Assembly (NCBI GenBank): GCA_022564545.1
Contig: JADFLG010000016.1
Span: 1 to 34,146 of the forward strand
From: Chloroflexota bacterium
Lineage (GTDB): Bacteria; Chloroflexota; Dehalococcoidia; Lucifugimonadales; Lucifugimonadaceae
DNA: 34,146 nucleotides
Direction: 5' to 3'
The notes beneath the pieces were generated by a model. It did no database searches. It saw only the letters and a program-made list of their open reading frames with translations, and was not told the DNA's origin. This document shows positions 656 through 14,126 of the stretch, piece by piece. The stretch's first letter is position 1. Every line of letters begins with the position of its first letter. Made by a program: the position numbers and the translations under genes.

Positions 656-800
656 TACGTTCCTTGAGTCACACGAGAAAACTGCCCATTATCAGAGATC
701 GCTGAGAGTACCATAATTCTGTTCTGAAACGGGGGTGTCAGACCATATACGCCAGCGCGATTCATGCGGTTTTCAGACTGCAAACTCACTTAAATTCGAA

Positions 801-824
801 GAGGCCCGCCAACTGGCGGGCCTC
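801..824 (-). terminator. Strong hairpin after the solute-binding protein gene
   Basis: Perfect 10-bp inverted repeat (GAGGCCCGCC/GGCGGGCCTC) with a 4-base loop, 53 bases beyond the stop codon of the binding protein. On the minus strand it is followed by TTCGAATTT, a moderately T-rich tail. It lies between the binding protein and its permease, so partial termination here could keep the permease transcript less abundant than that of the binding protein. The plus-strand tail (TCCTTATTT) is also T-containing, so it may work both ways. Confidence 0.75.
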
Positions 825-876
825 TCCTTATTTCAAGTCAACTGCCGGTTGCAATTGAACTGCTCAGGACATCGGA

Positions 877-2832
877 CTATTGCAGTTCGAGGTTCCAGAG
901 AGAGTTCAGGTTGCTGGCGGCTGCCAGGTCCATCTTGAAGCTCTTGATCTTCTTGTTGTTGAAGTAGAAAGCGTCCGGGATGGCGACTACACCAGGCTGA
1001 AGGACCTGGTCGTAGACGTATGCGAGGTACTCGTTCGCAGCAATCGTCGCGGTTGCGGAGTCAGGGGCCTCGGCCATTCGCCTGTAAAGGTCAAGGATGA
1101 CTGGGGATTCGAATCCACATGCGAAACCACCACGTGTGAGGGTCGTCTGCACAAGGCCCTTCGGGAAGTGCCACGGGTTCGACTCTCGGCCCTTGTCACA
1201 TGAAGTGATCCAGGGGTGCGTGTTGGACCGGCCAACAACAGTCGGTCGGAACGTCGCGTACGAGAACTTCAGGGAGAAGGTGGTGAGGCCGATGTCCTGC
1301 CAGAAACCGGCAACGGCATCAGCAACTTCACCTGTGATGGAAGCACCACCACCGAGCTCAGGTCCCGCATAGATCGAGATCTCAAAGGCCCAATCGCCGA
1401 GAGGTCCGTCTTTCGGAGCAGAACCGCGCTGGTAGTCAAGTTCCTGCGCCTTGATCAGCGCTATGGCGCCGTCCGGGTCGTAGGGGTACTCGAACTTCGA
1501 GTCCCAGTTCGGGCTGGCTGTTGAGAAGTACTCAACGTGGACCACGCGGCCCAGGCCAGCGACCAGTGTCTCGTTGACGAGTTCGCGGTCGACAGCGATG
1601 GCCAGCGCACGGCGTATGTTTTTCGCCTGCTCCAGGTCGCCTTCACCATGTGACGCGCCGGGCTTGCCAATCCATGGTAGGTCGTGGACAAACGTCGCCT
1701 TTGTCGGAAGTGGTTGACCCTTGTTCGCGCCTCCGGCGTAAACGTCTTCCCAGAGGTTGCCTGAGAAGAAGATGCCGAGCTGAACAGCGCCACCGGCCGT
1801 GGTCTGAGTGAACTCAGTCAGGTCCAGCTTGGCTGCGTCCTTCGGCTCCAGGTGGGCCATGTCGACCTGACCGTTGCGGAGAAGCGACAGCCGGGTCGTG
1901 GGTTCGCTGACCTGAACGATCTGGATGCGTTCGGTCTTGGGTTCGAGTTCCGCCAGCCAGTGTGTGCCAGGCCGGTTGACGATCGTGTACGACTCGTCCC
2001 GGAGCCATTCCTCGACCTGGTAAGGACCGGTTGCCACGATATGGTCGCGGACCCAGTCGATGCCCATCTCGTCGAACGCCCTCTTGGAGAAGACGTTGAA
2101 TGCCTGGCCCGACTGGTTGACGTAGTCGTCTTTCCATGTCGAGTCGTATGCGTTGAAGTTGAACTCGATGGTCTCGTCGTCTATCGCGACCCACTCGCCC
2201 CAGAGACCGGCGAAGTCACCAGCCTGTCCGTGAATGGACTCGGGAGTCGTGATGCTGTTGGCGTCGTTCATCGAGAACGCCACGTCCGCGGCGGTCATGT
2301 CCCCAAAATCGTTGCCGTCAACGATCTGGAACGGCACGCCAGTCTGGATCTTCACAGTCGCCTTCGACAGATCCGGTGAGATCGTAAAGTCATTGGCGAG
2401 CCAGTTGAGAGTGCTGTCATCCGGTGCACGGCGGAACAGGGTCTCACCGATTCCGACGTTTTTCAGACCATCGGGAGACTGGGCCTGTCCCAGACCGTTT
2501 TCACTGCCCAGAGTTGTGCCGCCAACGGCGATAACCGCCGTGCCGGCCGGGGTCTGGGGGTCCGGGGCCTTGATAAGGTCTGCCACTACTTCGGGCGCCA
2601 TTGCGACTGGAGTTGCCGTGACTACGACTTCTACTGTGTCGCCCTTCTCGGTCACGATCACCGTTCGCTCAACGATGACTTCGTCACCTTTGACCTCGAC
2701 CTCGACGATCACGGTTTCTCTGATGATCACCGGCGCTGCCGCTTCATCAGCACCGCCACAAGCGGTTGCGACGACAATTACGCCGCCTACAAGAAGCCCA
2801 ATTAAGAGCTTCAATTTTCCATTAATAAACAA
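877..2832 (-). CDS. ABC transporter substrate-binding lipoprotein, family 5 (DppA/OppA type)
   Basis: Extracytoplasmic binding protein of a peptide-type ABC importer, 651 aa. The start is TTG at 2832 behind a strong Shine-Dalgarno (AGGAGG, 7 bases before). Residues 1-24 form a lipoprotein signal with lipobox ATAC, so Cys25 is the lipidated residue. Residues 36-75 are a low-complexity Val/Glu/Thr linker ending VTATP, a feature I associate with Chloroflexota binding proteins. The rest fits SBP_bac_5: the GIGETLFRR region near 125, ADVAFSMND near 180, VATGPYQVEEW near 265, and NIRRALAIAVDRELV near 405. A DppB-like permease follows on the same strand. The ligand cannot be read from sequence. No frameshift or truncation is seen. 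Confidence 0.93.
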   Translation of the reverse strand: MFINGKLKLLIGLLVGGVIVVATACGGADEAAAPVIIRETVIVEVEVKGDEVIVERTVIVTEKGDTVEVVVTATPVAMAPEVVADLIKAPDPQTPAGTAVIAVGGTTLGSENGLGQAQSPDGLKNVGIGETLFRRAPDDSTLNWLANDFTISPDLSKATVKIQTGVPFQIVDGNDFGDMTAADVAFSMNDANSITTPESIHGQAGDFAGLWGEWVAIDDETIEFNFNAYDSTWKDDYVNQSGQAFNVFSKRAFDEMGIDWVRDHIVATGPYQVEEWLRDESYTIVNRPGTHWLAELEPKTERIQIVQVSEPTTRLSLLRNGQVDMAHLEPKDAAKLDLTEFTQTTAGGAVQLGIFFSGNLWEDVYAGGANKGQPLPTKATFVHDLPWIGKPGASHGEGDLEQAKNIRRALAIAVDRELVNETLVAGLGRVVHVEYFSTASPNWDSKFEYPYDPDGAIALIKAQELDYQRGSAPKDGPLGDWAFEISIYAGPELGGGASITGEVADAVAGFWQDIGLTTFSLKFSYATFRPTVVGRSNTHPWITSCDKGRESNPWHFPKGLVQTTLTRGGFACGFESPVILDLYRRMAEAPDSATATIAANEYLAYVYDQVLQPGVVAIPDAFYFNNKKIKSFKMDLAAASNLNSLWNLELQ

Positions 2833-3027
2833 TCGAATTCCTCCTCAGACGTGCATTGACCCGAATTTTGGGCCTTGTTCGGAGACCAAACTTCAAGGTC
2901 AGATCCCCACGTCCATTGCATGTCCGATAACGCCAACCTGTTAAGGCACACCCGACCGCGTGCACGCGCTAGAGCGTGAACGCACGAGAGGCGCACCCCG
3001 GGAGGTGCATCGAAACTTAGCCGTGAA

Positions 3028-3057
3028 AGTATATGAAGCCTGATTTCAGAGTGTCAA
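3028..3057 (-). promoter_or_regulatory. Sigma70-type promoter for the peptide ABC operon
   Basis: On the minus strand TTGACA (3057-3052) is followed after 18 bases by TATACT (3033-3028): a perfect -35 box and five of six -10 bases. Transcription would start near 3020, about 190 bases before the TTG start of the binding protein. That leader contains an interrupted dyad at about 2959-2987 (CGTGC and ACGC paired with GCGT and GCACG) and a short GCACC/GGTGC hairpin at 2994-3007. No known riboswitch was recognised in it. Confidence 0.65.
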
Positions 3058-3105
3058 CATTCAGGCGGGCCTGCTTGCCATATCGAAACGCCTTTTTCCG
3101 GTCGT

Positions 3106-4092
3106 TTAGCTGACCCTGTGAGGGACGCGGCCATGTAGAAAATCGATGACGTTATCGATCACCATATTTAGAGAAACGTTCAGGGCCTCGCTCGTATTGG
3201 CGGCGATGTGGGGCGTGAGAATCACGTTGGGCAGGCGGGTCAACGGTGAATTCCGGTCGAGCGGTTCGGCATTGAAAACGTCCAGAGCCGCTCCAGCGAT
3301 TGTTTCGTTCGCCAGAGCTTCGGCCAGCGCACGTGAATTCACCAACTGGCCGCGGGCAGTATTGACAAACAGCGCCGTCGGTTTCATACGCGCAAATTCT
3401 GCGGCTCCAAACATCGAGCGTGTCTGGGGCGTAAGTCGTGCATGCAAAGAAATCGCGTCCGAATTTGCAAGCAATTCCGCAAAACTCACCTCGGTCCAAT
3501 TCGAACTCTCACCGCTGGCGACGGTCTCACTCAATGAACTCATCAGGATGCGCATGCCTATGCCCTCAGCAATCCGGGCCAAACGGATTCCGACCGCACC
3601 CGTGCCGACTACTCCCAGGGTCCTCCCGGCCAGTTGCGTGAGTTGCCCCCCCGGCCACTCACCCTCCCTGACCCTCAGGTCCAGTTGCGGGATCTTCCTG
3701 GCAAGGGAAAGCAGAAGGGCCAGTGCGTGTTCTGCAACGGCAACGGTGGCGGCGTTCGGTGTGTTTGTTACCACGATGCCCAGACGCCTGGTGGTTTCGA
3801 GCGCCACATGATCGACGGCGGTGCCCCAGATAGCCACGTGCTTCAAGCCCGGGGAAACCCCTTCGAGGACCGTATTTGTGACCCTGGTGGACGTACGGGC
3901 AACGATCAGCGTGTGAGCGCCCGAAACCCTTTCGATCAGCTCATATGCGCTTCCCGGCCGCCGGGTATGCGACATGATTTCGACGTCCGGCAGCCTGCGC
4001 AGGCGGGCGAGCGCGGCCGAATCGGCGAATACCGGCGGGTCGTCGTCGGGCACTACTACCCGGATCACTTCATCTGTTTGTTCTGAGGTCAA
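3106..4092 (-). CDS. D-2-hydroxyacid dehydrogenase (NAD-dependent)
   Basis: Cytosolic oxidoreductase of the D-isomer-specific 2-hydroxyacid dehydrogenase family (phosphoglycerate dehydrogenase / hydroxypyruvate or glyoxylate reductase group), 328 aa, which is normal length. The Rossmann glycine motif GTGAVG is at 163-168. The three family catalytic positions are intact: Arg247 in NTARGQ, Glu276 in FNAEP and His295 in LTPHIA. The start is TTG at 4092 with only a weak ribosome site. A GTG at residue 9 is an alternative. It is transcribed divergently from the corrinoid cluster with about 330 bases between them. Substrate is not predictable. A glycerate kinase lies at the far end of the window, so hydroxypyruvate/glycerate is possible but is only a guess. 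Confidence 0.9.
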   Translation of the reverse strand: MTSEQTDEVIRVVVPDDDPPVFADSAALARLRRLPDVEIMSHTRRPGSAYELIERVSGAHTLIVARTSTRVTNTVLEGVSPGLKHVAIWGTAVDHVALETTRRLGIVVTNTPNAATVAVAEHALALLLSLARKIPQLDLRVREGEWPGGQLTQLAGRTLGVVGTGAVGIRLARIAEGIGMRILMSSLSETVASGESSNWTEVSFAELLANSDAISLHARLTPQTRSMFGAAEFARMKPTALFVNTARGQLVNSRALAEALANETIAGAALDVFNAEPLDRNSPLTRLPNVILTPHIAANTSEALNVSLNMVIDNVIDFLHGRVPHRVS

Positions 4093-4419
4093 GTCGAAGT
4101 CCGCCGCTCGCTACTTTACTCACGGCCCTTTGGCCTGTTGGCCCGGGAGCCGATGATCGGGGGCCCGGTCTCTTCGTTTAGCGGGTTTACCGATAATCCC
4201 GAGGGCCTGGCTCCTAAAATATGGCTGGCGCAATGCGAGCATATAGGCGAGAGTCGGCTTTCGCCCGGACCGAACACTCATTCAGTGACCCCGATGATAC
4301 GATTGTGAGTCACTTTACTAGTGTGCGGCCTGTGCGTGGCCAATGTTCGGCCGGTACATTGCAAGTAGCCGACCAGCTGGCATAACGATTGTTTTGCGCG
4401 GAGGATGCAGGGGCTGAAT
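4093..4419. other. Divergent intergenic region between dehydrogenase and corrinoid cluster
   Basis: There are 327 bases without a credible gene. It must hold the promoters of both flanking transcripts, but I see no convincing -35/-10 pair. I looked for a cobalamin riboswitch (B12-box-like GCCACTG) and for a SAM riboswitch because of the downstream B12 genes, and saw neither. GC-rich partly palindromic stretches lie at about 4138-4171. Confidence 0.6.
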
Positions 4420-4764
4420 ATGGCGCGCGTTCGCGTAATGTACTGGAAAGAGATCCCCGTTCAGGTCCAGGCCGAGGATGCGAACGGGCGTGTTTCTCGA
4501 CAGCTTGAAGACCGTTTCCAGCAGGCTGCCGACATGGTTGCGATGCAGGACGGCAGCCAGGGGACGGACGAATACCTTGATGGATGGGGATTCGGCCCCT
4601 ACGAAGATGGTGAGGGGACGGCGACCGATGCCGCTGAAGCGGTTGCCGTTCGATTGGAGCATATGCCCGCCAACTTCACTTTAAAGATTATCGATATGCA
4701 CAAAGCTGGGACCAGGGACCCTGTTCCGGGTGCAATCGATCACTGGGCGCTGGACCTGGGTTAA
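4420..4764 (+). CDS. Small PF13769-like ('virulence factor' domain) protein of corrinoid methyltransferase clusters
   Basis: A 114-aa protein with no signal peptide or membrane span. MARVRVMYWKEIPVQVQ at the start, RVSRQLEDRFQQAADMVAM in the middle and GTDEYLDGWGF after it match what I remember of the PF13769 'Virulence_fact' family, whose members often sit beside RACo-type activators and B12 methyltransferases. Biochemical role is unknown and the family name is misleading. ATG at 4420 is preferred over the in-frame ATG at 4405. AGGGG lies 6 bases before 4420, while GGAGG directly abuts 4405. The C-terminus (residues about 88-114, TLKIIDMHKAG onwards) is less typical. It is the first gene of the cluster, 73 bases before the homocysteine methyltransferase. 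Confidence 0.75.
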   Translation: MARVRVMYWKEIPVQVQAEDANGRVSRQLEDRFQQAADMVAMQDGSQGTDEYLDGWGFGPYEDGEGTATDAAEAVAVRLEHMPANFTLKIIDMHKAGTRDPVPGAIDHWALDLG

Positions 4765-4837
4765 GTCTTAGTCTGCGGCATTTGTATCTGACACTATTAA
4801 TAACATGCTTCCATCAACAAAAACCCGGAGAAATCGC

Positions 4838-5749
4838 TTGGCAGCATCTGATCAGCATCCCGGCATTCTCGATCGTCTGGCGGCGGGCGACACGCTAATT
4901 TTCGACGGTGCGACCGGAACGTACTTGCAGCAGCACGGTCTGGAACCCGGTGGCAGCCCCGAACTGATGAACGCCAACGACCCCGATGTGGTCCGGGGGA
5001 TGGCAAAGACCTACTTCGATGCAGGGTCCGACATCGTCCTGACCAACTCGTTCGGCGGCAACAGGTTCATGCTGGCCAAATACGGCGCAGCCGAACGGCT
5101 GTTCGAGCTGAACCGTCTGGCGGCAGAGCACGCCCGCGCCGTGGCTCCTCCCGGCAAATATGTCGCAGGTTCGATCGGGCCAACAGGCGAATTCATCGAG
5201 CCGCTGGGCGATGTGACTGAAGACGAGTTGTACGATACGTTCGCGGAAATGTCGAAGGCATTCGAAGCGGGCGGCGCCGATGCCGTGATGGTCGAGACAC
5301 AACTCGGCCTCGAAGAAGCTGCCATTGCCGTTCGTGCGGCTAAAGAAAATACGGGTCTGGTTGCGATGGCGACGATGGTGTTCGACAAGGGGCCGCGCGG
5401 TTACTTCACTATGTTCGGCGTCACACCGGAACAGGCCGTCGAGGGCTTGCAGGAAGCCGGGGCCGATATTGTCGGGACCAACTGCGGGAGCGGCATCGAA
5501 CGGATGGTGGAGATTGCCACAAGAATGCGAGCGGTGACCGACGGATATCTCGTTGTGCAGTCGAACGCCGGTCTTCCTGAAATACGTCAGGGTGAGATCT
5601 GCTATCCGGAAACGCCCGAGTTCATGGCCGAGCATTACCGCAAACTGGCCGAATTGCCGATAAATATTCTCGGCGGCTGCTGCGGGACGACCGCAGAACA
5701 CATACGTGCGCTCGTACAATCCGTCAAAAGCGAACCAACACTGGTTTAA
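4838..5749 (+). CDS. Homocysteine S-methyltransferase family protein (MetH N-terminal module / BHMT type)
   Basis: Zinc-dependent TIM-barrel enzyme that transfers a methyl group to homocysteine (S-methyl donor side), 303 aa. It corresponds to the stand-alone first module of MetH. FDGATGTYLQQ lies near the start and GSIGPTGEFIEP near residue 110. The three zinc cysteines are present: Cys216 in GTNCGSG and Cys281-Cys282 in GGCCGTT. I take TTG at 4838 as the start because CGGAG lies 7 bases before it. The longer in-frame ATG at 4805 has no ribosome site and would add 11 basic residues. In this cluster it probably accepts methyl groups from the corrinoid protein at 7700-8449 to form methionine. 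Alternatives such as an S-methylmethionine or betaine donor cannot be excluded. Confidence 0.88.
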   Translation: MAASDQHPGILDRLAAGDTLIFDGATGTYLQQHGLEPGGSPELMNANDPDVVRGMAKTYFDAGSDIVLTNSFGGNRFMLAKYGAAERLFELNRLAAEHARAVAPPGKYVAGSIGPTGEFIEPLGDVTEDELYDTFAEMSKAFEAGGADAVMVETQLGLEEAAIAVRAAKENTGLVAMATMVFDKGPRGYFTMFGVTPEQAVEGLQEAGADIVGTNCGSGIERMVEIATRMRAVTDGYLVVQSNAGLPEIRQGEICYPETPEFMAEHYRKLAELPINILGGCCGTTAEHIRALVQSVKSEPTLV

Positions 5750-5771
5750 TTCGCGATTGGAGAGACGATCG

Positions 5772-6443
5772 ATGCCGACGCTGACTGAACAACCCCGTAT
5801 TGCGGAACGGATCAAGGAGCTTGGTCACTGTATCGAGCTCGTTTCGATCGACCCACACTTCCACGATGTGACCATAGGACTGTTCATCAAAGACGGCCTT
5901 ATGACGATCTGGTCGTTCAGTAACCGCGAGGGGATCGCTGGCCGGATCGAGGAGGTAAGGGACCGCTGTACCCGGCTTGGCGATGTAATTGCCGTCGAAG
6001 GGACCACAGACCAACTGAAGTTGACTTCAGATCTGTACCTTGACCGGGCGCTCAGGTTCATGTTCACCTTCGCGGTCGAGAAAGACCCTGCTCGCGAACT
6101 GCCCACCGGCAGGATTACTGCGCCCGATACCAAGACCAAGCTCGTTTTCGTGATAAACGGGGCTGAGGAAAACGGCAAGTATGTCTACACGATCTCAGCC
6201 GAGGGTCGTTCCGATAAAGCGGAGTTGAGGGTGAGGGCAACTGTTGGTGGATTTGTTCGATACTCTGACTGCGAGCGTGTCGACAAGAACAAATTCGCGT
6301 TTCCAGATGGAAAGCGTTACGACAGCTTTGCACGGTTGATCCTGCCGCTCGCCCGCAATGTCAGCGCCGTGGAATCGCAGTTGGCGGCAAGTGAACTTGA
6401 GGGACAAATGACGACTCAGACACTGGGATTTTCGCAAAGCTAG
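5772..6443 (+). CDS. Uncharacterised 223-aa protein of the corrinoid cluster
   Basis: I do not recognise this protein. ATG at 5772, 22 bases after the upstream gene, has GGAGAG about 9 bases before it. The protein is soluble by composition, with no signal peptide or membrane span. The first half (residues about 1-90) has DPHFHDVTIGLFIKDGLMT followed by helix-like IAGRIEEVRDRC. The second half is strand-rich (KTKLVFVINGAEENGKYVYTI, then KAELRVRATVGGFVRY). Two cysteines in the middle (RDRC, YSDC) are too far apart to suggest a metal site. Codon use matches its neighbours and it sits between the homocysteine and UroD-fold methyltransferases, so a role as accessory or substrate-recognition subunit is possible. 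That is inference from position only. Confidence 0.8.
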   Translation: MPTLTEQPRIAERIKELGHCIELVSIDPHFHDVTIGLFIKDGLMTIWSFSNREGIAGRIEEVRDRCTRLGDVIAVEGTTDQLKLTSDLYLDRALRFMFTFAVEKDPARELPTGRITAPDTKTKLVFVINGAEENGKYVYTISAEGRSDKAELRVRATVGGFVRYSDCERVDKNKFAFPDGKRYDSFARLILPLARNVSAVESQLAASELEGQMTTQTLGFSQS

Positions 6444-6506
6444 CCAGACCTGATCAAGATTTACAATACGGTCCCATGCAAGACGGACCAGGCGAAAAAT
6501 AAAAAA

Positions 6507-7550
6507 ATGTCACCCGTAGCCGAAAAAATGAAGCCCCGAGACCGAGTGCTGGCCGCACTCGCGGGCGAACCGGTCGACCGCCCGCCGGTCTGCACCCCGA
6601 CAAACGTTGCGACGGTTGAGTTGATGGACCTGGTCGACTCGCCATTTCCCGACGCTTGCCGCGACGGGGAGCTGAACGCTCGGCTGGCGGCCACTGCTTA
6701 CACCGAGCTCGGGTTCGACACGATCGCACCTTATTTCTCGATCATCCAGGAATCTTCCGCGCTCGGTTGCGACATGCAGTGGGAGCAGAAGGACAACTGG
6801 CCGACCGTCAGAATGTCGAACCCGATCTGGAAGAAAGCGTCCGACGTAAAGATCCCCGCCGGGTTTCTTGAGCACCGGGACACGAAAACGATCACCGATT
6901 CCATAAGCAGTCTGAAGAAGGAATATGGTCGCGAGGTGGTGATAGTCGGGAAGACGATGGGTCCGTGGACCCTGGCCTACCATGTTTTTGGCGTCGAACC
7001 GTTCCTGCTCGGTACCGTTGACGACCCGGACGAAACGATGAAGGCGCTTCATGCCCTGAAGGAAGTAACTATCCTGTACGGTCTGGCGCAAATAGATGCA
7101 GGCGCCGACGTTCTCACCCTGCCCGATCACGCAACCGGCGACCTTGTGAGCAGCGAGTATTACAGGCGGTTCCTGTTGGAGATGCACCAGGAGCTCAGAG
7201 AGGCGTTGCCGGTTCCGATCATGCTGCATATTTGTGGCAGTACGGTCGACCGGATGCCCTACATTGCGCAGACCGGCATGGCCGCGTTCCACTTCGATTC
7301 GAAGAACGACCCGGTCGAAGCTATGGCCGCCGTCGATGGCAAAATCCGGCTGGTCGGGAATATCAACAACCCGACCACGCTGTACGCACGCGGACCTGAA
7401 GAGGTGAGGGCCGAGGTCTACGCGGCCCTCGATGCCGGGGTGCAGTTGATCGCCCCCGAGTGCGCGATTCCGCTCAAGACCAAGCTGGAAAACCTGCTCG
7501 AGATCCCGATTGCGATCGAAGACTGGGTTGCGGAGCGAGGCAAGAACTAG
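6507..7550 (+). CDS. Corrinoid-dependent methyltransferase, uroporphyrinogen decarboxylase family (MtaA/CmuA type)
   Basis: TIM-barrel methyltransferase of 347 aa. MKPRDRVLAALAGEPVDRPPV is the typical beginning of UroD-fold methyltransferases. The MtaA/CmuA zinc motif His-X-Cys...Cys is complete: His241 and Cys243 in LHICGS, and Cys319 in PECAIP. This separates it from true HemE, which lacks the zinc site. Such enzymes move a methyl group between a corrinoid protein and a thiol or other nucleophile. The corrinoid protein lies 149 bases downstream. The direction and small substrate are unknown. It could demethylate a donor or act on a second acceptor. ATG at 6507 is given. ATG at 6528, seven codons later, is a possible start because homologues usually begin MxPRERV. 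Confidence 0.9.
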   Translation: MSPVAEKMKPRDRVLAALAGEPVDRPPVCTPTNVATVELMDLVDSPFPDACRDGELNARLAATAYTELGFDTIAPYFSIIQESSALGCDMQWEQKDNWPTVRMSNPIWKKASDVKIPAGFLEHRDTKTITDSISSLKKEYGREVVIVGKTMGPWTLAYHVFGVEPFLLGTVDDPDETMKALHALKEVTILYGLAQIDAGADVLTLPDHATGDLVSSEYYRRFLLEMHQELREALPVPIMLHICGSTVDRMPYIAQTGMAAFHFDSKNDPVEAMAAVDGKIRLVGNINNPTTLYARGPEEVRAEVYAALDAGVQLIAPECAIPLKTKLENLLEIPIAIEDWVAERGKN

Positions 7551-7599
7551 CTTACGAAAAAACCCCCGTTTTGAACAACAGCTCGTTTTCTGGCGTTTT

Positions 7600-7636
7600 C
7601 CGGCAATCCAATGAGACAATGAATGATTGGCGCCGG
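7600..7636 (+). promoter_or_regulatory. Imperfect intercistronic hairpin before the corrinoid protein gene
   Basis: CCGGC and CCAAT (7600-7612, three-base bulge) pair with ATTGG and GCCGG (7626-7636, one-base bulge) around a 13-base loop. There is no T-run after it, so it is more likely an RNA-processing or stability element than a terminator. It lies in the 149-base gap between the UroD-fold methyltransferase and the corrinoid protein. Confidence 0.4.
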
Positions 7637-7699
7637 TTCTGAAACAGCGTTGTTTTCCAAATTCACAAGACCGTGTGCCCACACGTTTAGAGATAATTA

Positions 7700-8449
7700 A
7701 TGGCGATCACGCATGAAGGCCTGGCACGAGAGTTCGAGTATGTGACCCGACCCGGTGAGCAAAAGCATATTGGTGATGCGATCGACGGGACCGACCCGAT
7801 TATGCAAGAGATGGCGTACCAGTTGATCGTCGGAAACAACACGGACGTCGACCGACTTACCAGAGAGGCACTGGACGACGGCTACACGGCCAACCAGATC
7901 CTCGACGATGGCCTGCTAAACGGCATGGCTATTGTGGGCGTGAAGTTTCGGGACAACATCATTTTCGTACCTGAAGTACTGGTTGCCGCGCGGGCGATGA
8001 AAGCGGGGATGTTCCACATTGAGCCGATTCTGTCGGCCTCCGGGGCGGAGCCCGCGGGTATCGTGATCATGGGCACCGTGAAGGGCGACCTGCACGACAT
8101 TGGCAAGAACCTGTGCATCATGATGCTCCGGGGAGCGGGCTTCGTCGTTCACGACATTGGCGTCGATTCGTCGCCTGAAGATTTCATCGATGCGGTCGAA
8201 GAACACAGCGCCCAGATCGTGGGAATGTCGGCATTGCTGACCACGACGATGCCAAACATGGGCCGGACGATTGCGACCTTCGAAGACATGGGCCTGCGTG
8301 ACGAAGTCCGCATAATGGTGGGTGGTGCGCCCGTAACGCAGGATTTTGCTGACGAGATGGGTGCGGATGCATACGGCGATAATGCCGTTGAAGCTGTCGA
8401 TAAGGCAAAAGAACTCGTCATACTACTGGCAGAATTGAAGTCCAGCTGA
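7700..8449 (+). CDS. Corrinoid (cobalamin-binding) methyl-carrier protein, MtaC/MtbC/MttC type
   Basis: Small B12 carrier protein that shuttles a methyl group between methyltransferases, 249 aa. Residues about 28-115 form the four-helix cap domain, including NQILDDGLLNGMAIVG and FVPEVLVAARAMKAGM. Residues about 120-249 form the Rossmann-like B12 domain. The base-off/His-on motif DxHxxG is intact: Asp130, His132, Gly135 in GDLHDIG. It is followed by SALLTTTMPNM and MVGGAPVT, the usual cofactor-contact loops. ATG at 7700 has only a weak ribosome site. It should be methylated and demethylated by the neighbouring homocysteine and UroD-fold enzymes and rescued from the Co(II) state by the activator at 8975-10633. 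Confidence 0.95.
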   Translation: MAITHEGLAREFEYVTRPGEQKHIGDAIDGTDPIMQEMAYQLIVGNNTDVDRLTREALDDGYTANQILDDGLLNGMAIVGVKFRDNIIFVPEVLVAARAMKAGMFHIEPILSASGAEPAGIVIMGTVKGDLHDIGKNLCIMMLRGAGFVVHDIGVDSSPEDFIDAVEEHSAQIVGMSALLTTTMPNMGRTIATFEDMGLRDEVRIMVGGAPVTQDFADEMGADAYGDNAVEAVDKAKELVILLAELKSS

Positions 8450-8491
8450 CCGGCTGAATTGGCGGCAACTGTTATTTTCGAGGGACGTTCG

Positions 8492-8773
8492 TTGGCTGAA
8501 GGACTGGCCCAAAACGGCAAGGACAGGTTGGACACCGAAAAGGCGCGTGCCAGCCTGGACCGCCTGTACACGATCTATAAGGACATCTCCGCCACCGCTG
8601 ACGAAGTAATGCAGACAAGGTGTCCGTACAAGAACGCCCAGAGCCTGTGCACGGCCAAGTTCGGCTGCCGCAATCAGTTCTTCACAAAAGACCCGACCGC
8701 CCCACCGGCCTGTGCCGGGAGCGATCAAATCGACTATCGTGATGCCTGGGACGCGCAGCCACCCACTCTGTAG
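8492..8773 (+). CDS. Small four-cysteine protein of the corrinoid cluster, function unknown
   Basis: A 93-aa protein. The N-terminal half is helix-like (KARASLDRLYTIYKDISATADEVM). The C-terminal half carries four cysteines with spacing C-x8-C-x5-C-x14-C (RCPYKN, LCTAKFGCRNQ, PPACAG). They are well placed to bind zinc or an iron-sulphur cluster. TTG at 8492 is preferred because GAGGG lies 7 bases before it. An in-frame TTG at 8459 would add 11 residues but has no ribosome site. It sits 42 bases after the corrinoid protein and before the activator, so a role in electron delivery or B12 protein maturation is plausible. I do not recognise a named family. Confidence 0.72.
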   Translation: MAEGLAQNGKDRLDTEKARASLDRLYTIYKDISATADEVMQTRCPYKNAQSLCTAKFGCRNQFFTKDPTAPPACAGSDQIDYRDAWDAQPPTL

Positions 8774-8839
8774 CTATCTCTGAGGGGGGCACCGAGGCGA
8801 GCATGTGTGGTCAATTCCTGCTCTCCGGGGGGTTGGCCA

Positions 8840-8941
8840 GGTTGAGGGGGAATGGTGCCGGCGGTGGAGTAGAAGCTGTCAAAAGCGTCTTGCTCACCGA
8901 TCAACCATTCCCTCACCCCAACTCTCTCCTGACGGAGAGGG
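8840..8941 (-). repeat. Interspersed hairpin repeat, copy 1 (about 102 bp)
   Basis: Read on the minus strand, this starts with a hairpin of 8 pairs including a G-T (8941-8922), then GTTGGGGTGAGGGAATGGT, about 50 variable bases, and ACCATTCCCCCTCAACC at the end. The G-rich and C-rich parts are imperfect inverted copies of each other (8840-8856 against 8904-8919). A second copy of nearly identical length and design lies at 33891-33994. Non-coding, REP- or MITE-like. It fills most of the 201-base gap between the four-cysteine protein and the activator. Confidence 0.7.
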
Positions 8942-8974
8942 AGTTTCGGACGTAGTTTCAAAGGCACCTGAAAT

Positions 8975-10633
8975 TTGAGCCCTGTTTTTCTCAATTCCAA
9001 GCGACTCGATTCGAAAAAAGACGATTCGCTGTTCGACTTTGCCGACTCCCTGTCGATCAGGGTTCCGACGTCGTGCGGCAGGACTGGCGAGTGCCATGAG
9101 TGTATCGTCGAGGTCAGGCGGGGTGCCGACGCGCTTACGCCGCCGACCGATTCCGAGAAATTTCTGCGCGGCAACTACCGGCTGGCGTGCCAGGCACTGG
9201 TGGCCGACCCTTCAGCGGACATTGATTTTTCCGTTCTGCGCAGGCAGCCGCGCATCCTTACATCGGGCACCAGGCGAGATGTTAAGCTCCATCCCGCCTA
9301 CACCCGCGGCGGAAAAGACGGCGAAAACGTCGTGTTCGACGGGCCCGATGGTCCTATCACAATCGATACGTACCGCGGTGCGATATACGGGATAGCTGCC
9401 GACCTGGGCACCACTACGGTTGTACTGAACCTGGTGGACCTGGAGTCGGGCGAAACGGTATACACAGCGTCGTTCGAAAATCCGCAGCGATTTGGCGGCA
9501 GCGACATCATGAACCGCATCACGTACGACGGCGGTCCAGATGCCGGCGAACTGCAGGCCGTGATGGTTTCGTCGATTAACTTCGAGATTGGCGAAATGGT
9601 GCGGGCGCTGAAGATCAGGCGCCGCCAGATCTACGAGATCGTCGCAGTTGGCAACACCACTATGCGCGAGCTCTTTTTCGGCATTGACGTACAGAGCATC
9701 GGGACCCGTCCCTATAAATCCACTATCGAGGACGAGTTCAGAGCACATAAGCGCCCGAATATGTCGCTCTCGACCACCGCCGTAAAACTTGGCCTGAGGA
9801 TTCATCCAAAGGCGACGGTCTACGGCGGCCCGCTGATCGCGTCGCACCTCGGGGCCGATGTTGCGGCCGACCTGCTGGCGCTGGGCATGGAAGACCGAAC
9901 CGAACCGGTGATCCTGATCGATGTCGGCACCAACACCGAGGTCGTGGTCGGCTACAACGAAAGGCTGCTAGCTGCTTCGTGTCCCGCCGGGCCAGCTTTT
10001 GAGGGCGGCCAGGTTACCTACGGCATGCCCGGTTACGACGGCGCTGTAGAGAAGGTCGCGATCGACGACCGGGGCGAGGCGAAGTCGACCGTGATTGGGG
10101 ACGTCGAGCCGATTGGCATCTGTGGCTCGGGGTTGATCGATCTGCTGGCCGAATTAAGACGGACCGGGCTGATGAACGAACTTGGCAGGTTCACCGACGA
10201 TTCTGATGAATACGAGTTTTCAAAGTCCAACAAACTGACTATCTCCAGGGCCGATATCTCTGCGCTGGCGCAGGCGAAGGCGGCCAACTACTGCGGCCAG
10301 GCGATCGTGCTGCGCGAGTACGGGTTGCCGATTGAGAAGTTTGAGAAACTCTATCTGGCCGGCGGGTTTGCCAACTATGTCGATGAGTCCAATGCTATCG
10401 ACATCGGGTTCATCGCAAACATGCCGCTCGACAGGGTGGAAAAGATCGGCAACGCCGCACTCGAGGGCGCAACTATCATGCTCCTGTCGACTCTGAAGCG
10501 GGAAGAGATCGAGAAACTCACCGCGACGATTGAACATATCGAGCTTGAAACAGCACCGGACTTTTTCGACTTCTTCGTCGAAGGCTGCATGTTCAAGCCG
10601 ATGGAAAATGTGTGGCAGGGTGGCCAGGGGTAG
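8975..10633 (+). CDS. Reductive activator of corrinoid-dependent methyltransferases (RACo/RamA-like, DUF4445 ASKHA domain)
   Basis: ATP-dependent activator that reduces inactive Co(II) corrinoid protein to Co(I), 552 aa. The N-terminal 2Fe-2S ferredoxin domain has all four ligands: Cys34, Cys40 and Cys43 in SCGRTGECHEC, and Cys72 in RLACQA. A linker follows, then an actin-like (ASKHA) ATPase with phosphate loops at Asp143 (AADLGTTT) and Asp316 (LIDVGTNTE), then GICGSGLIDLL, and the adenosine-region YLAGGFANYVD near residue 461. It starts at TTG 8975 with AAGG about 10 bases upstream. The ferredoxin domain begins close to the N-terminus and nothing appears missing. A repeat separates it from the gene upstream. 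Its partner is presumably the corrinoid protein at 7700-8449. Confidence 0.95.
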   Translation: MSPVFLNSKRLDSKKDDSLFDFADSLSIRVPTSCGRTGECHECIVEVRRGADALTPPTDSEKFLRGNYRLACQALVADPSADIDFSVLRRQPRILTSGTRRDVKLHPAYTRGGKDGENVVFDGPDGPITIDTYRGAIYGIAADLGTTTVVLNLVDLESGETVYTASFENPQRFGGSDIMNRITYDGGPDAGELQAVMVSSINFEIGEMVRALKIRRRQIYEIVAVGNTTMRELFFGIDVQSIGTRPYKSTIEDEFRAHKRPNMSLSTTAVKLGLRIHPKATVYGGPLIASHLGADVAADLLALGMEDRTEPVILIDVGTNTEVVVGYNERLLAASCPAGPAFEGGQVTYGMPGYDGAVEKVAIDDRGEAKSTVIGDVEPIGICGSGLIDLLAELRRTGLMNELGRFTDDSDEYEFSKSNKLTISRADISALAQAKAANYCGQAIVLREYGLPIEKFEKLYLAGGFANYVDESNAIDIGFIANMPLDRVEKIGNAALEGATIMLLSTLKREEIEKLTATIEHIELETAPDFFDFFVEGCMFKPMENVWQGGQG

Positions 10634-10665
10634 CGTCGCGCCGTTGTCAGTCTGAAAACTGGCGA

Positions 10666-10752
10666 ACCATTGTCATTCTGAACTTGCCTGTCCTGAGTAC
10701 ATCCTGAGCTTGACGCAGGGCCCAGCCGAATGGGATTCAGAATGATAATGAC
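10666..10752. repeat. Imperfect terminal-inverted-repeat element (about 87 bp)
   Basis: ACCATTGTCATTCTGAA (10666-10682) is matched at 14 of 17 positions by the reverse complement of 10736-10752. The interior holds CATCCTGAGCTTGACGCAGG, close to the TCCTGAGCTTGTCGAAGG repeats I know from several bacterial genomes. It is non-coding and fills the gap between the activator and the CtBP-like dehydrogenase. Transcripts through it would fold into a long hairpin. Confidence 0.6.
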
Positions 10753-10830
10753 GGTGTTCCTACGGGTGTCTGCGCCCGCGTCCGAGATGGCAGCACGGTT
10801 AATCCTGAATCGAAGGTATCATTTCGCCCC

Positions 10831-11817
10831 ATGACAGCCAAAGTGCTTATAACCGACTACGTCTGGCCTTCGATCGACCCCGAAAGGGAAGTGTTGGAAG
10901 CTGCAGGCATCGAGACGGTAGTTGCTCCTGACGCCTCTGAGTCCACTCTCGCGGGGTTGGCCCAGAAGGTCGATGCGATCATGTTCTGCTTCGCACAGGT
11001 CACCGGGAACGTCCTTGAAGCTGCGACGAACTGCAAGGTCGCGGCCAGGTATGGGATAGGCGTCGACAACGTGGATATCGGGAAGGCCACGGAACTTGGC
11101 ATCGTAGTGACCAACGTGCCCGACTACTGCATGGACGAGGTGACCGACCACGCGCTGGGCATGATCCTGGCCCTGAACAGGCGACTCATCCCCCACAACC
11201 GTTCGGTTGTATCCGGTGGCTGGGGCGACGTTGTGTTGAACCAGCCAATGCACCGGACCCGTGGCGCGACGCTCGGGATAGTCGGGTTTGGCCGTATCGG
11301 GCGGGCGCTTGCCGCCAAGGCGGTTGGGTTCGGGATGAACATTCTTGCCTATGATCCGCTGATTCAACCGGGCACAGAGGTGGACGGGGCCAGCGCGGTC
11401 TCGCTCGACGAGGTGCTCACACAATCAGACTTCGTATCGCTGCATGTGCCGCTGATGCCTGAAACGCAGCACATGATAGGGGCGCCGGAACTGGCCAAAA
11501 TGAAACCCGGCTCGATCATCGTCAACTGTGCCCGCGGCGGGCTGATCGATGAAGATGCGCTCGCCGCGTCGCTGGCGTCGGGTCATACGGCGGGCGCTGG
11601 TCTCGATGTGGTCGAACCTGCACCGCCGGACCCCGCGAGTCCGCTGCTGAAGCAGGAGAACGTGATTATTACGCCTCACACGGCGTTCTTCTCCCAGGCC
11701 TCGACCCTGGAACTGGAACGGCGAACCGCGCAGGAAGTTATCCGTGTGTTGAACGGCGAGCTGCCCGAGAACCTGATCAACCCGGACGTCCTGGGCACGG
11801 CCCGTTCGGGAATCTAG
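10831..11817 (+). CDS. D-2-hydroxyacid dehydrogenase-like protein, CtBP group, with altered catalytic Glu
   Basis: NAD-binding protein of the D-isomer-specific 2-hydroxyacid dehydrogenase family, 328 aa. The glycine motif GFGRIG is at 152-157, Arg235 in NCARGG and His283 in TPHTAFF. At the position of the family's catalytic glutamate (usually LDVxExEPP) the sequence is LDVVEPAPP. Ala264 therefore replaces Glu, although Glu262 is close by. Activity may be reduced, or the substrate may differ. The N-terminal half (RYGIGVDNVDI, NVPDYCMDEVTDHAL) fits the CtBP-like branch. ATG at 10831 lacks a clear ribosome site, and TATCAT lies exactly 8 bases before it, as in leaderless genes. It is co-directional with the corrinoid cluster but separated from it by a repeat. 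Confidence 0.88.
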   Translation: MTAKVLITDYVWPSIDPEREVLEAAGIETVVAPDASESTLAGLAQKVDAIMFCFAQVTGNVLEAATNCKVAARYGIGVDNVDIGKATELGIVVTNVPDYCMDEVTDHALGMILALNRRLIPHNRSVVSGGWGDVVLNQPMHRTRGATLGIVGFGRIGRALAAKAVGFGMNILAYDPLIQPGTEVDGASAVSLDEVLTQSDFVSLHVPLMPETQHMIGAPELAKMKPGSIIVNCARGGLIDEDALAASLASGHTAGAGLDVVEPAPPDPASPLLKQENVIITPHTAFFSQASTLELERRTAQEVIRVLNGELPENLINPDVLGTARSGI

Positions 11818-11831
11818 TAAAACCGGCAGCT

Positions 11832-14126
11832 CTAACCGAGTATGCTGCGCAGGTCTCTGGCGTGGCCTGAGGCTGCTTCTGCCTCGTTCGCATACGTGTC
11901 GACCGACGAGAACGCTGCACGGGAAGCGGCGTCGGCGAGCCAGTTCAGCAATTCAGTGGTTTGGCCTGCAGTTGCCGGGTCGGCGGTCTGGCCAGAAAGT
12001 TGGCCGTGAGATAGGGCAGTGAACGCGTACTCACGGTAAGACTCGTTCTTCATCCGGCGCCTGAAACCGCTCTTTTCGAGTCGTTTCTCGACTGACACAA
12101 AGGCCTTGATAATCGCCTTGCGGTCGATGTCACTAATTGTCTCGTAGTCGAACCTGACCGGCCTGTCCGATGATCTACTCCTGTAGAAAAACAGGTACCA
12201 GACAAGCATTGCCGCGAATCCCGCGCCGAACAGTGCGAACAGTCCCCAGTTCACGCCGTGTTTCACCGCAAATTCGAAGGCTTTAAGCAATGCGCCAGGC
12301 GTGCGTCCGGCCGCTGCGGCAAGACTGTCGCCAAGCCGACGGTCGAGGAGAGAACTCAGACCTGACGGCGGCGCCTGTTCGATATCGGCGACCGTCGGCA
12401 GGTCGGGTCGCGTCGAGGCATCGAACGGTATCCAACCGGCACTCCGGAAGTAGATTTCTGACCACGCATGGGCGTCTCTGGGCGTGATTTTGCTGGCACC
12501 TGAGAACGTGTTGTACTCGCCAGGCAGATACCCGATCGCAATTCGCGACTGAAGACCGGCTGAGCGGGCCATCAGAGTCAGTGCAGTTGCGAAATCGATA
12601 GCCGACCCCGGCAACTCACCGATCACAAACCGCTTCAGGTCTGTCGATGGCGTCAGCGGCGATTCGGTTTCTGTGTCGTATTCGAGGTTTTGCAGATACG
12701 ACGTTATGGCCGACGCTTTGTCGAAATCGTTCTCAGCACCCTCGGTCAGCGCGGATGTCAGGCGGCGGATTTCCTCAAACCCCGGGGGAATCGTGCCGTA
12801 TTCCTTTTTGATCCATCCAGCCCGGTCTCTCCGCAGGATGTCCGGATCGGTCTCGGGCTGTTCCGACACGACCTGGTACGTCGAACCAGGAGTGAGATCG
12901 ATACGCCCGCGGTTATCGCGTGGAACGGCGATTGCGATCGGTTCGTAGCCGGTGAGCAAGTTGCTTCCCAGATCGTATTGAACGAAATAGGTCTGTAGAT
13001 AGCGCTGACTTTCGTGGGTGTGACCCGCCCGGGCGAACAGCGAACGGAACTGGCGGTCATCGGTTATGGTCGAGTACCAGAGTCCCAGTCCATCATTGGC
13101 CCCGGGATCGAACGTGTCATACACCCTGCCACGCCAGTAACTTGCCACAGGACTGCGGATAAATGCGATCCTGTCCGCACCGCCAAGCTCGTATATCAGT
13201 GGTGCTCCGTGGATTTCGACTGGAACGTCGGATGCTTCACCGAGCAGATCGTTTGCAGTTGCGGGGCCTCCTGTAGTTGCCGGGCCGCTCGGAGCGAAAA
13301 GGTCCGGGTCTATCCTGGCCTGCCCGGACCCCCCGTTTGCCCCTTCATCGACGAGGTTCCGGGCAGTCTCCAGGTCGACCCGCGGCAACGGCGAGTCCTC
13401 GCCGGTCACCGGCAGAAACGCCATGCGTGCGGCTTGCGGGGTCTGCGAGGCGTCCCAGGGCAGGATCAAGAACGACGCGATGGAAGCAATCACCACTGCC
13501 AGCGAGGCCCCCAGCCAGTAAACAGTGCTGCCGAAACGACTATTAAGACCCTTTACCGTTGCGCCGGCGGTCAGATCGACGTACTGCACAGTGGCGAGGA
13601 AGATCACCACGATCGCCATGTATCCGCCAAGCAGCCCAACGAACTCGGTCCCAAACGCCTTCTCTGCCGCAAAGAACATCACAAGGCAACTGAATACGAG
13701 CTGGGTGTAGAGGCCTGCCCGCGTCCGGGCGTCGAAGACTGAAGCTGCACCAGCGATGAGCAGGAAGTTGGCAACCGGAATTCTGTTTCCCTGCAGCGCC
13801 TCGACCAGTTCGAAGCGCATCGTCACCCCCGCAGTGATGATCGACCCGGCAATCATCATTGATATCCAGGGCATCCGCCTGCGAGTTGCCCCCAACGCCA
13901 CCCAGTGCCCTATGAGAGTTGCCGGGATGGTCAAGAGTGGGACAACTGGAGAGACCCCGATCAAGAACAGAGAAAACGATGCCCACACTGTCGCAGCGGC
14001 TACCAGGAATCTGACTCGAAGCGAGAGTTCGGGCCGGTCGTTGAAGATCTTCCGGTACACCCTGCCAACCGTCGACTCGTATCGTCGCAGGACTACTGGC
14101 TGCACGGAGCGCTCGACAGTGGTCAC
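11832..14126 (-). CDS. Transglutaminase-like membrane protein (TgpA family) lacking the catalytic Cys
   Basis: 764 aa. Several membrane spans occupy about residues 35-235 (TgpA N-terminal domain). A large external region follows, then a transglutaminase-like core (about 470-575), a span near 640-660 and a cytoplasmic DUF4129-like tail. In the core His553 (DAHAW) and Asp569 (FDAST) are present. The cysteine position reads GSAIDFA, with Ala509 where GxCxxFA is expected, so a thiol protease/transglutaminase reaction seems impossible. GTG at 14126 overlaps the stop of the DUF58 gene (GTGA), giving translational coupling. It is the third gene of a MoxR-DUF58-transglutaminase unit. Such units are common, and their exact function (envelope or chaperone-type assembly) is unsettled. 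Confidence 0.88.
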   Translation of the reverse strand: MTTVERSVQPVVLRRYESTVGRVYRKIFNDRPELSLRVRFLVAAATVWASFSLFLIGVSPVVPLLTIPATLIGHWVALGATRRRMPWISMMIAGSIITAGVTMRFELVEALQGNRIPVANFLLIAGAASVFDARTRAGLYTQLVFSCLVMFFAAEKAFGTEFVGLLGGYMAIVVIFLATVQYVDLTAGATVKGLNSRFGSTVYWLGASLAVVIASIASFLILPWDASQTPQAARMAFLPVTGEDSPLPRVDLETARNLVDEGANGGSGQARIDPDLFAPSGPATTGGPATANDLLGEASDVPVEIHGAPLIYELGGADRIAFIRSPVASYWRGRVYDTFDPGANDGLGLWYSTITDDRQFRSLFARAGHTHESQRYLQTYFVQYDLGSNLLTGYEPIAIAVPRDNRGRIDLTPGSTYQVVSEQPETDPDILRRDRAGWIKKEYGTIPPGFEEIRRLTSALTEGAENDFDKASAITSYLQNLEYDTETESPLTPSTDLKRFVIGELPGSAIDFATALTLMARSAGLQSRIAIGYLPGEYNTFSGASKITPRDAHAWSEIYFRSAGWIPFDASTRPDLPTVADIEQAPPSGLSSLLDRRLGDSLAAAAGRTPGALLKAFEFAVKHGVNWGLFALFGAGFAAMLVWYLFFYRSRSSDRPVRFDYETISDIDRKAIIKAFVSVEKRLEKSGFRRRMKNESYREYAFTALSHGQLSGQTADPATAGQTTELLNWLADAASRAAFSSVDTYANEAEAASGHARDLRSILG

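What the first reader, a model, noticed from the sequence alone, without database searches (positions are those of the whole stretch)
4420..10633. Split corrinoid methyl-transfer system with a homocysteine module but no visible folate or classical donor module
Seven co-directional genes give a homocysteine methyltransferase (zinc Cys216/281/282), a UroD-fold MtaA/CmuA-type methyltransferase (His241-x-Cys243...Cys319), a corrinoid carrier (DxHxxG), a RACo-type ATP/2Fe-2S activator, a PF13769-like protein and two proteins I cannot assign. Established: MetH combines homocysteine, folate, B12 and SAM-reactivation modules in one chain, and split MetH versions using a RamA-like activator have been reported (from memory). 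Here no pterin-binding gene and no MttB/MtgB-type donor enzyme is present. Inference: either a split methionine synthase whose methyl donor enters through the UroD-fold enzyme, or a demethylation pathway that delivers its methyl groups to methionine.
Basis: partly seen in the sequence, partly recalled or inferred. Interest (0 to 1): 0.78.

Follow-up and report, generated by a model that had tools for sequence, protein, structure and literature searches.

The report
Split methionine synthase with extra port
A marine SAR202-type bacterium carries a methionine-making enzyme broken into separate proteins, and it comes with an extra enzyme that probably feeds methyl groups from a sulfur or selenium compound into methionine alongside the usual folate route.

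Summary
'No folate module' is true of the window only. The same assembly has a stand-alone methyl-folate:corrinoid methyltransferase beside an MTHFR on another contig, and 16 of 54 well-covered relatives carry it inside the operon. So it is, in part, an MtgCDE/RamA-type split methionine synthase, a described kind. No MttB/MtgB was found in this genome or in 50 relatives.

The new part is the UroD enzyme: present in 80 of 80 carrier genomes, as conserved as the corrinoid protein, with the His-Cys-Cys zinc motif that a preprint links to S/Se chemistry. In three carriers the stand-alone folate enzyme was not found and a complete MetH is present, yet the whole operon persists. I read it as a corrinoid hub that delivers methyl groups to homocysteine from two inputs: folate, and a methyl-sulfur/selenium compound via UroD (direction and substrate inferred). 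PF13769 ('virulence factor') is fused to the corrinoid protein or RACo elsewhere, so it belongs to the corrinoid machinery. Verdict: new variant of a known kind.

The parts
4420..4764 (+). PF13769 ('Virulence_fact') small protein; component of the corrinoid system
   Evidence: Pfam 44.6 bits; in 47 of 54 covered loci; same domain fused to the corrinoid protein in Gemmatirosa and to RACo in Terrarubrum, and inside the mtg-type cluster of Sinorhizobium pSymB
4805..5749 (+). Homocysteine S-methyltransferase (PF02574), MtgE-like acceptor module; start uncertain (4805 ATG or 4838 TTG)
   Evidence: 211 bits; nearest solved relatives are MetH homocysteine domains, 1q7m E 5.6e-49, against BHMT 1umy 2.6e-19; zinc Cys motifs in 60 of 60 complete relatives, one of which (L090) is only 35% identical
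5772..6443 (+). Orphan family ORF3, 223 aa, predicted two-lobed alpha/beta protein, function unknown
   Evidence: 39 members scanned: three single weak Pfam hits, best E 0.012; best PDB sequence match E 0.15; AlphaFold pLDDT 86.9, no Foldseek match at E<=0.001; in 50 of 54 covered loci
6507..7550 (+). UroD-fold MtaA/CmuA-type (Mlp-like) methyltransferase with His241-Cys243-Cys319 zinc motif; proposed second methyl port
   Evidence: NF004889 252.6 bits over cut-off 244, TIGR01463 234.7 just under 235.4; MtaA structure 4ay7 E 5.1e-50; motif residues in 28 of 28 aligned and 71 of 71 complete relatives; found in 80 of 80 carrier genomes
7700..8449 (+). Corrinoid protein (MtgC-like) with cap and B12-binding domains, DLHDIG
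   Evidence: PF02607 + PF02310; 49% identical over 205 aa to the corrinoid protein of the Sinorhizobium cluster, 37% to the CmuA corrinoid domain
8459..8773 (+). Orphan family ORF6, 104 aa, four invariant Cys (C55, C64, C70, C85); proposed Fe-S or zinc helper of the activator
   Evidence: Alignment of 33 members; only weak Pfam hits, best E 0.0038, best PDB sequence match E 0.25; in 53 of 54 covered loci
8975..10633 (+). RACo/RamA-type ATP-dependent corrinoid activator with 2Fe-2S domain
   Evidence: RACo_C_ter 231 bits, Raco_middle 143, Fer2 32; C-x5-C-x2-C in 64 of 64 relatives longer than 450 aa

Best explanation
The operon encodes a corrinoid methyl-transfer hub that ends in methionine. 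The RACo-type protein, probably helped by the PF13769 protein and the four-cysteine protein, reduces the cobalt of the small corrinoid protein to Co(I). Co(I) is methylated from one of two sources: methyl-folate, through a pterin-binding methyltransferase encoded elsewhere in this genome next to an MTHFR; or a methylated sulfur (possibly selenium) compound, through the UroD-fold His-Cys-Cys enzyme. The zinc homocysteine methyltransferase then takes the methyl group to make methionine. Shown here: gene set, order, domains, motifs, co-occurrence. Inferred: the reactions, the direction and substrate of the UroD enzyme, and the roles of ORF3, ORF6 and PF13769.
For: Domains and motifs. Stand-alone folate enzyme with MTHFR on C29 of the same assembly, in 45 of 50 carriers and in 16 of 54 covered loci; MTHFR/MetF-like genes in 11 of 54 covered loci. 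In 20 of 50 carriers the operon's homocysteine enzyme (same coordinates) is the only PF02574 protein found and no PF01717 (MetE-type) protein is found. MetH and the stand-alone folate enzyme exclude each other: MetH in 3 of the 5 carriers without it, in 0 of the 45 with it (Fisher p 5e-4, relatedness not corrected). In those three the operon, including UroD with HICG/PECA, is intact. UroD in 80 of 80 genomes. Mean pairwise identity over 46 loci: UroD 0.73, corrinoid 0.72, RACo 0.58, homocysteine enzyme 0.57. PMC10418091 (a preprint; Results read) links His-Cys-Cys in this superfamily to S/Se substrates. PF13769 fusions.
Against: No expression, genetic or biochemical data. The assembly of the window also holds a full MetE (766 aa, C17), so methionine need not depend on this operon here; C17 may be a gain or contamination (3.4%). 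Among the 50 carriers, 17 have PF01717 proteins and 14 have weak PF08267 matches, 6 of them over the cut-off, so shorter MetE-type enzymes are possible there. Most carriers are draft MAGs of unknown completeness, so absences are soft. CmuA, a methyl-halide enzyme, has the same H-x-C...C pattern, so the motif does not prove a sulfur substrate. UroD enzymes can also work toward a thiol (MtaA direction). Two carriers showed neither folate enzyme nor MetH (G203, G225). A divergent folate enzyme could have been missed in the three MetH genomes, which were searched with one protein only. No riboswitch was found in window 1-14000 and 18 fetched loci.
Confidence: 0.58

Rival explanations
1. An ordinary folate-only split methionine synthase; the UroD-fold protein is a structural or assembly subunit, or a relic, and carries no methyl group.
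For: Folate enzyme present in 45 of 50 carriers; no UroD gene is annotated in the Sinorhizobium mtg-type stretch and none is named in the P. inhibens passages seen (PMC5764234); UroD is as constrained as the corrinoid protein, as expected of a tight subunit.
Against: Zinc motif residues in 71 of 71 complete copies; UroD kept in the three genomes with MetH and no stand-alone folate enzyme found.
Confidence: 0.2
2. A dedicated salvage or demethylation route: methyl groups of one methyl-sulfur, methyl-selenium or methyl-halide compound go through UroD and the corrinoid protein to homocysteine; the folate enzyme elsewhere serves other purposes.
For: Intact operon with no stand-alone folate enzyme found in three MetH genomes, two of them labelled Entotheonella that may have received it by transfer; one UroD match in 25 of 30 genomes searched.
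Against: In 20 of 50 carriers the operon's homocysteine enzyme is the only one found and no MetE-type or MetH protein was found, so folate methyl groups probably have to pass here; folate enzyme inside the operon in 16 of 54 covered loci.
Confidence: 0.15
3. UroD runs outward: methyl-corrinoid from folate methylates a small thiol or selenide, as MtaA does with coenzyme M.
For: Nearest solved relative is MtaA; an Mlp methylated selenide from methylcobalamin in vitro (PMC10418091).
Against: The three genomes without a stand-alone folate enzyme would then have no evident methyl source for it; a homocysteine acceptor is already linked.
Confidence: 0.05
4. Glycine-betaine or aryl methyl ether demethylation feeding methionine.
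For: Relatedness of the corrinoid protein to MtgC-type proteins.
Against: PF06253 absent from the own genome and 0 of 50 carriers; His-Cys-Cys instead of the substituted site described for O-methyltransferases.
Confidence: 0.02

Closest known systems
Split methionine synthase of Phaeobacter inhibens (PMC5764234, passages seen) / MtgCDE of Ruegeria pomeroyi (PMC12478193: abstract, Results part 1 of 2, Discussion, passages)
   Same: Separate homocysteine, corrinoid and folate modules plus RamA-like activator; PF13769, MTHFR and folate enzyme also in the Sinorhizobium pSymB cluster
   Different: UroD partner in 80 of 80 carriers; no MttB/MtgB found; DUF1638 in only 3 of 50 carriers; two orphan families; mainly Chloroflexota
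Type 1 mlp gene clusters, Kountz and Balskus (PMC10418091, preprint; Introduction, Methods and Results read, Discussion passages)
   Same: UroD MtaA-like protein with His-Cys-Cys, small corrinoid protein, RACo-type activator; proposed methyl-S/Se metabolism returning to methionine
   Different: One UroD instead of at least two; a homocysteine enzyme in the operon; folate enzyme linked in relatives, which their definition excludes; SAR202-type carriers instead of obligate anaerobes
CmuA/CmuB chloromethane pathway
   Same: UroD plus corrinoid domain, CmuB and MetF in one region; H-x-C...C motif
   Different: CmuA is one chain; its UroD part is only 25% identical; no homocysteine enzyme annotated in the stretch seen
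MtaA, methylcobamide:coenzyme M methyltransferase
   Same: Fold and motif alignment, 4ay7 E 5.1e-50
   Different: Below the MtaA equivalog cut-off, 222.9 against 400; homocysteine enzyme in the operon

Membership tests
Split methionine synthase (MtgCDE/RamA type) | Stand-alone homocysteine methyltransferase (PF02574) | tested here: met
   211 bits, 314 aa
Split methionine synthase (MtgCDE/RamA type) | Stand-alone corrinoid protein | tested here: met
   PF02607 + PF02310, 249 aa; 49% identical to the Sinorhizobium homologue
Split methionine synthase (MtgCDE/RamA type) | Stand-alone pterin-binding methyltransferase in the genome | tested here: met
   345 aa, C29 of the same assembly, PF00809 94 bits; 30% identical to the Sinorhizobium enzyme over the aligned part
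Split methionine synthase (MtgCDE/RamA type) | RamA/RACo-type activator | tested here: met
Split methionine synthase (MtgCDE/RamA type) | DUF1638 helper (needed in P. inhibens; not a structural module) | tested here: not met
   found in 3 of 50 carriers; the window's own genome was not searched for it
Split methionine synthase (MtgCDE/RamA type) | Methionine auxotrophy on loss | not testable with these tools
   no genetics
Type 1 mlp gene cluster | At least two MtaA-like proteins | tested here: not met
   one UroD gene in the operon
Type 1 mlp gene cluster | No folate methylase within 20 kb | tested here: not met
   linked in 16 of 54 covered relatives; in the window's assembly it is on another contig
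Type 1 mlp gene cluster | His-Cys-Cys zinc site | tested here: met
MtaA/CmuA family (NF004889, TIGR01463) | Score over curated cut-off | tested here: inconclusive
   NF004889 met (252.6 against 244); TIGR01463 missed by 0.7 bits
MtgB/MttB methylamine or betaine system | PF06253 enzyme | tested here: not met
   0 of 1 own genome, 0 of 50 carriers
Classical MetH | All modules in one chain | tested here: not met
   separate genes; no MetH-length frame among the PF02574 and PF00809 matches of the own genome

The most novel reading that the evidence does not exclude
The conserved heart of the system is a folate-independent methionine synthase: a UroD-fold zinc enzyme takes methyl groups from a common methyl-sulfur (or methyl-selenium) compound and passes them through a corrinoid protein to homocysteine, with a new activation set (PF13769 protein, four-cysteine protein, ORF3). 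The folate enzyme is an add-on that turns the same hub into a replacement for MetH. SAR202-type Chloroflexota carry it, and it has moved to Entotheonella.
Probability: 0.38. Interest if true: 0.78.

Novelty: new variant of a known kind. Interest (0 to 1): 0.55.

Why it matters
SAR202 Chloroflexota are described as ubiquitously distributed in the ocean (PMC10444878, start of abstract in the listing). If the UroD port is real, they can turn methylated sulfur or selenium directly into methionine, which links organic sulfur cycling to protein synthesis through vitamin B12. It would also give the family labelled 'virulence factor' (PF13769) a biochemical home, and name two new candidate proteins of corrinoid activation. 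A cultured carrier of the same genus with a closed genome exists (Candidatus Lucifugimonas marina, L019), so the idea is testable.

Tried and rejected
Rejected: no folate module in the organism; an MttB-type donor; a chance set of genes; O-demethylase reading (zinc motif); ORF3 as a recognisable DUF1638 and ORF6 as the 112-aa hypothetical of Sinorhizobium (no meaningful tblastn match; fold-level kinship not tested). The in-frame TAG reported in two folate-enzyme hits is at the end of the gene in L070; for L086 I read the wrong frame and did not repeat it.

Biases: the 80 loci are the best 80 of 331 relatives; the 50 genomes were picked from these 80 for complete operons (one, L064, lacks RACo in the locus), near-duplicates dropped, so folate enzyme, MttB, MetE, MetH and DUF1638 were not tested in the other 30. 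The 54 'covered' loci are those with >6 kb left and >3 kb right of the corrinoid gene. The tree uses 69 UroD proteins and a midpoint root.
Full report
What is there. Seven genes on the + strand, 4420-10633, with gaps of 9 to 201 bases: PF13769 protein, homocysteine S-methyltransferase (PF02574), ORF3 (no family), UroD (PF01208), corrinoid protein (PF02607 + PF02310), ORF6 (no family) and a RACo-type activator. A D-2-hydroxyacid dehydrogenase gene follows at 10831-11817; another lies upstream on the other strand at 3106-4092.

Where it lives. The closest loci come from records named Dehalococcoidia, Chloroflexi or SAR202. The same-genus genome (G190) has its hit at the coordinates of the closed genome of Candidatus Lucifugimonas marina (L019), so the window belongs to that genus by the tool's grouping. 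A search of GTDB genomes with the corrinoid protein found 331 relatives; the best 80 were kept. Of these, 54 have enough flank. All seven genes stand in the same order in 45 of 54: 30 without a folate enzyme in the locus, 11 with it upstream, 4 with it between UroD and the corrinoid gene. Single genes: ORF6 53, ORF3 50, UroD 50, homocysteine enzyme 49, RACo 48, PF13769 47 of 54. In four covered loci (L057, L079, L081, L089) UroD is not beside the corrinoid gene, but it is elsewhere in those genomes; all 30 genomes searched have it, and the 50 others have it in the locus, so 80 of 80, some only as fragments at contig ends.

The folate module. The assembly of the window has a stand-alone 345-aa pterin-binding methyltransferase on contig C29, directly downstream of a 536-aa MTHFR with the PF12225 C-terminal domain. 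Of 14 such loci that I fetched outside the operon, 11 have a clear MTHFR/MetF-like neighbour, one a partial match, two none. Among 50 carriers chosen for complete operons, 45 have a stand-alone relative of the folate enzyme, 3 match only inside a MetH-sized frame and 2 have none. In 16 of the 54 covered loci it sits in the operon (in one of them RACo is not in the locus), and in 11 of 54 an MTHFR/MetF-like gene does too. This makes a split, folate-linked methionine synthase, as reported for Phaeobacter inhibens (PMC5764234, passages) and extended as MtgBCDE in Ruegeria (PMC12478193: abstract, Results part 1 of 2, Discussion). A stretch of Sinorhizobium meliloti pSymB holds bmt, a trimethylamine methyltransferase-family gene, corrinoid protein, DUF1638, a PF13769 protein, MTHFR pieces, folate enzyme and an ASKHA activator.

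Is it the methionine synthase? In 20 of 50 carriers the operon's enzyme (I compared the coordinates of all 20) is the only PF02574 protein found, and no PF01717 (MetE-type) protein is found. Over the 50, PF01717 matches occur in 17. The N-terminal MetE domain PF08267 gives only partial matches in 14 of 50, six over the cut-off, in frames of 255 to 475 aa, not the length of MetE. Most of these genomes are drafts, so absences are soft. The window's own assembly is different: it has a 766-aa MetE on C17 and a 673-aa homocysteine enzyme/MTHFR fusion on C50. The fetched stretch of C17 has similar G+C (0.577 against 0.587), so I cannot say whether it is a contaminant.

The UroD enzyme. It scores above the cut-off of NF004889 and 0.7 bits under that of TIGR01463; the MtaA structure is its nearest solved relative. 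Its H-x-C...C motif is invariant in 28 aligned proteins and its residues are present in 71 of 71 complete ones (one copy has TECA in place of PECA and keeps the Cys). PMC10418091 (preprint; Results read) states that His-Cys-Cys marks S-methyltransferases in this superfamily and that in O-methyltransferases the Cys ligands are replaced. CmuA, which acts on chloromethane, also shows the pattern, so methyl halides are not excluded. Over 46 loci with all six families measured, UroD (0.73) and corrinoid protein (0.72) are the most conserved, against RACo 0.58, homocysteine enzyme 0.57, and ORF3 and PF13769 0.47. In 15 loci that hold a folate enzyme, that enzyme averages 0.55 against UroD 0.76. An enzyme for an occasional side substrate would not be expected to behave so (inference).

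A natural test. Three of the 50 carriers (L068 and L095, labelled Entotheonella; L075) gave no stand-alone folate enzyme but have a complete five-domain MetH. None of the 45 with the stand-alone enzyme has a PF02574 frame longer than 701 aa. The exclusion suggests that stand-alone folate enzyme plus operon replaces MetH. Yet all three keep the whole operon, with the zinc motifs of UroD and homocysteine enzyme intact. On the UroD tree (midpoint root) the three fall in two places, within the branch that holds all loci with the folate enzyme in the operon; one origin is not ruled out. The Entotheonella pair lies among Chloroflexota, which suggests transfer. The numbers are small, the genomes related, and the folate enzyme was sought with one protein only, so this is a pointer, not proof. 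It is the best evidence that UroD-corrinoid-homocysteine works without folate.

Helpers. PF13769 is fused to the corrinoid protein in Gemmatirosa kalamazoonensis (22.9 bits, just under the cut-off of 25) and to a RACo in Terrarubrum flagellatum (91.2 bits). It therefore belongs to corrinoid chemistry in these bacteria. Gemmatirosa pairs its fused protein with RACo, a homocysteine enzyme and a distant UroD that lacks the H-x-C motif by eye. ORF6 has four invariant cysteines. ORF3 gives a confident model (pLDDT 86.9) without a clear match among solved structures. DUF1638, which Price et al. found necessary in P. inhibens, is in only 3 of 50 carriers; ORF3 and ORF6 may stand in for it (inference).

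Mechanism, with status. Shown by sequence: the modules, their motifs and their co-occurrence. Following from established families (recalled): zinc-bound homocysteine takes a methyl group from methyl-corrinoid, RACo/RamA reactivates Co(II). Inferred: UroD methylates Co(I) from a methyl-sulfur or methyl-selenium compound; helpers act in activation. The cultivation paper on SAR202 (PMC10444878, passages) says the isolation medium was amended with vitamins and amino acids, and the word methionine does not occur in its main text, so prototrophy is unknown.

Verdict. Half of the finding is a known kind (split methionine synthase); the missing folate gene is a matter of gene location. The ever-present UroD port, its persistence where no stand-alone folate enzyme was found, and the two orphan partners make a new variant.

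Noticed in passing
L112:8182-10464 and L113:7986-8957: PF13769 ('Virulence factor') is fused to a RACo activator in Terrarubrum and to a corrinoid protein in Gemmatirosa; the Pfam name looks misleading for this branch.
   Followed up: partly
L068, L095: Entotheonella-labelled chromosomes carry an operon whose UroD lies among Chloroflexota on the tree, which suggests lateral transfer.
   Followed up: partly
L109:3878-6178 (contig C17 of the window's assembly): A complete 766-aa MetE in this assembly; no full-length MetE N-terminal domain was found in the 50 carrier genomes searched. Gain or contamination.
   Followed up: no
window 3106-4092 (-) and 10831-11817 (+): Two D-2-hydroxyacid dehydrogenase genes flank the operon; relatives of the downstream one lie near it in 34 of 54 covered loci.
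   Followed up: no
L090:2-1985; genome of L081 (G268 C67:42198-44279): Two UroD genes in tandem; the genome of L090 (G274) also has a UroD-like stretch with two in-frame TGA.
   Followed up: no
L113:10821-12032: A 403-aa protein without Pfam family between RACo and the homocysteine enzyme in Gemmatirosa.
   Followed up: no
L110:3555-5576 and the 637-701 aa frames: Many carriers also have a second, longer homocysteine methyltransferase; in the window's assembly it is fused to an MTHFR-like part. Its role beside this operon is unclear.
   Followed up: no
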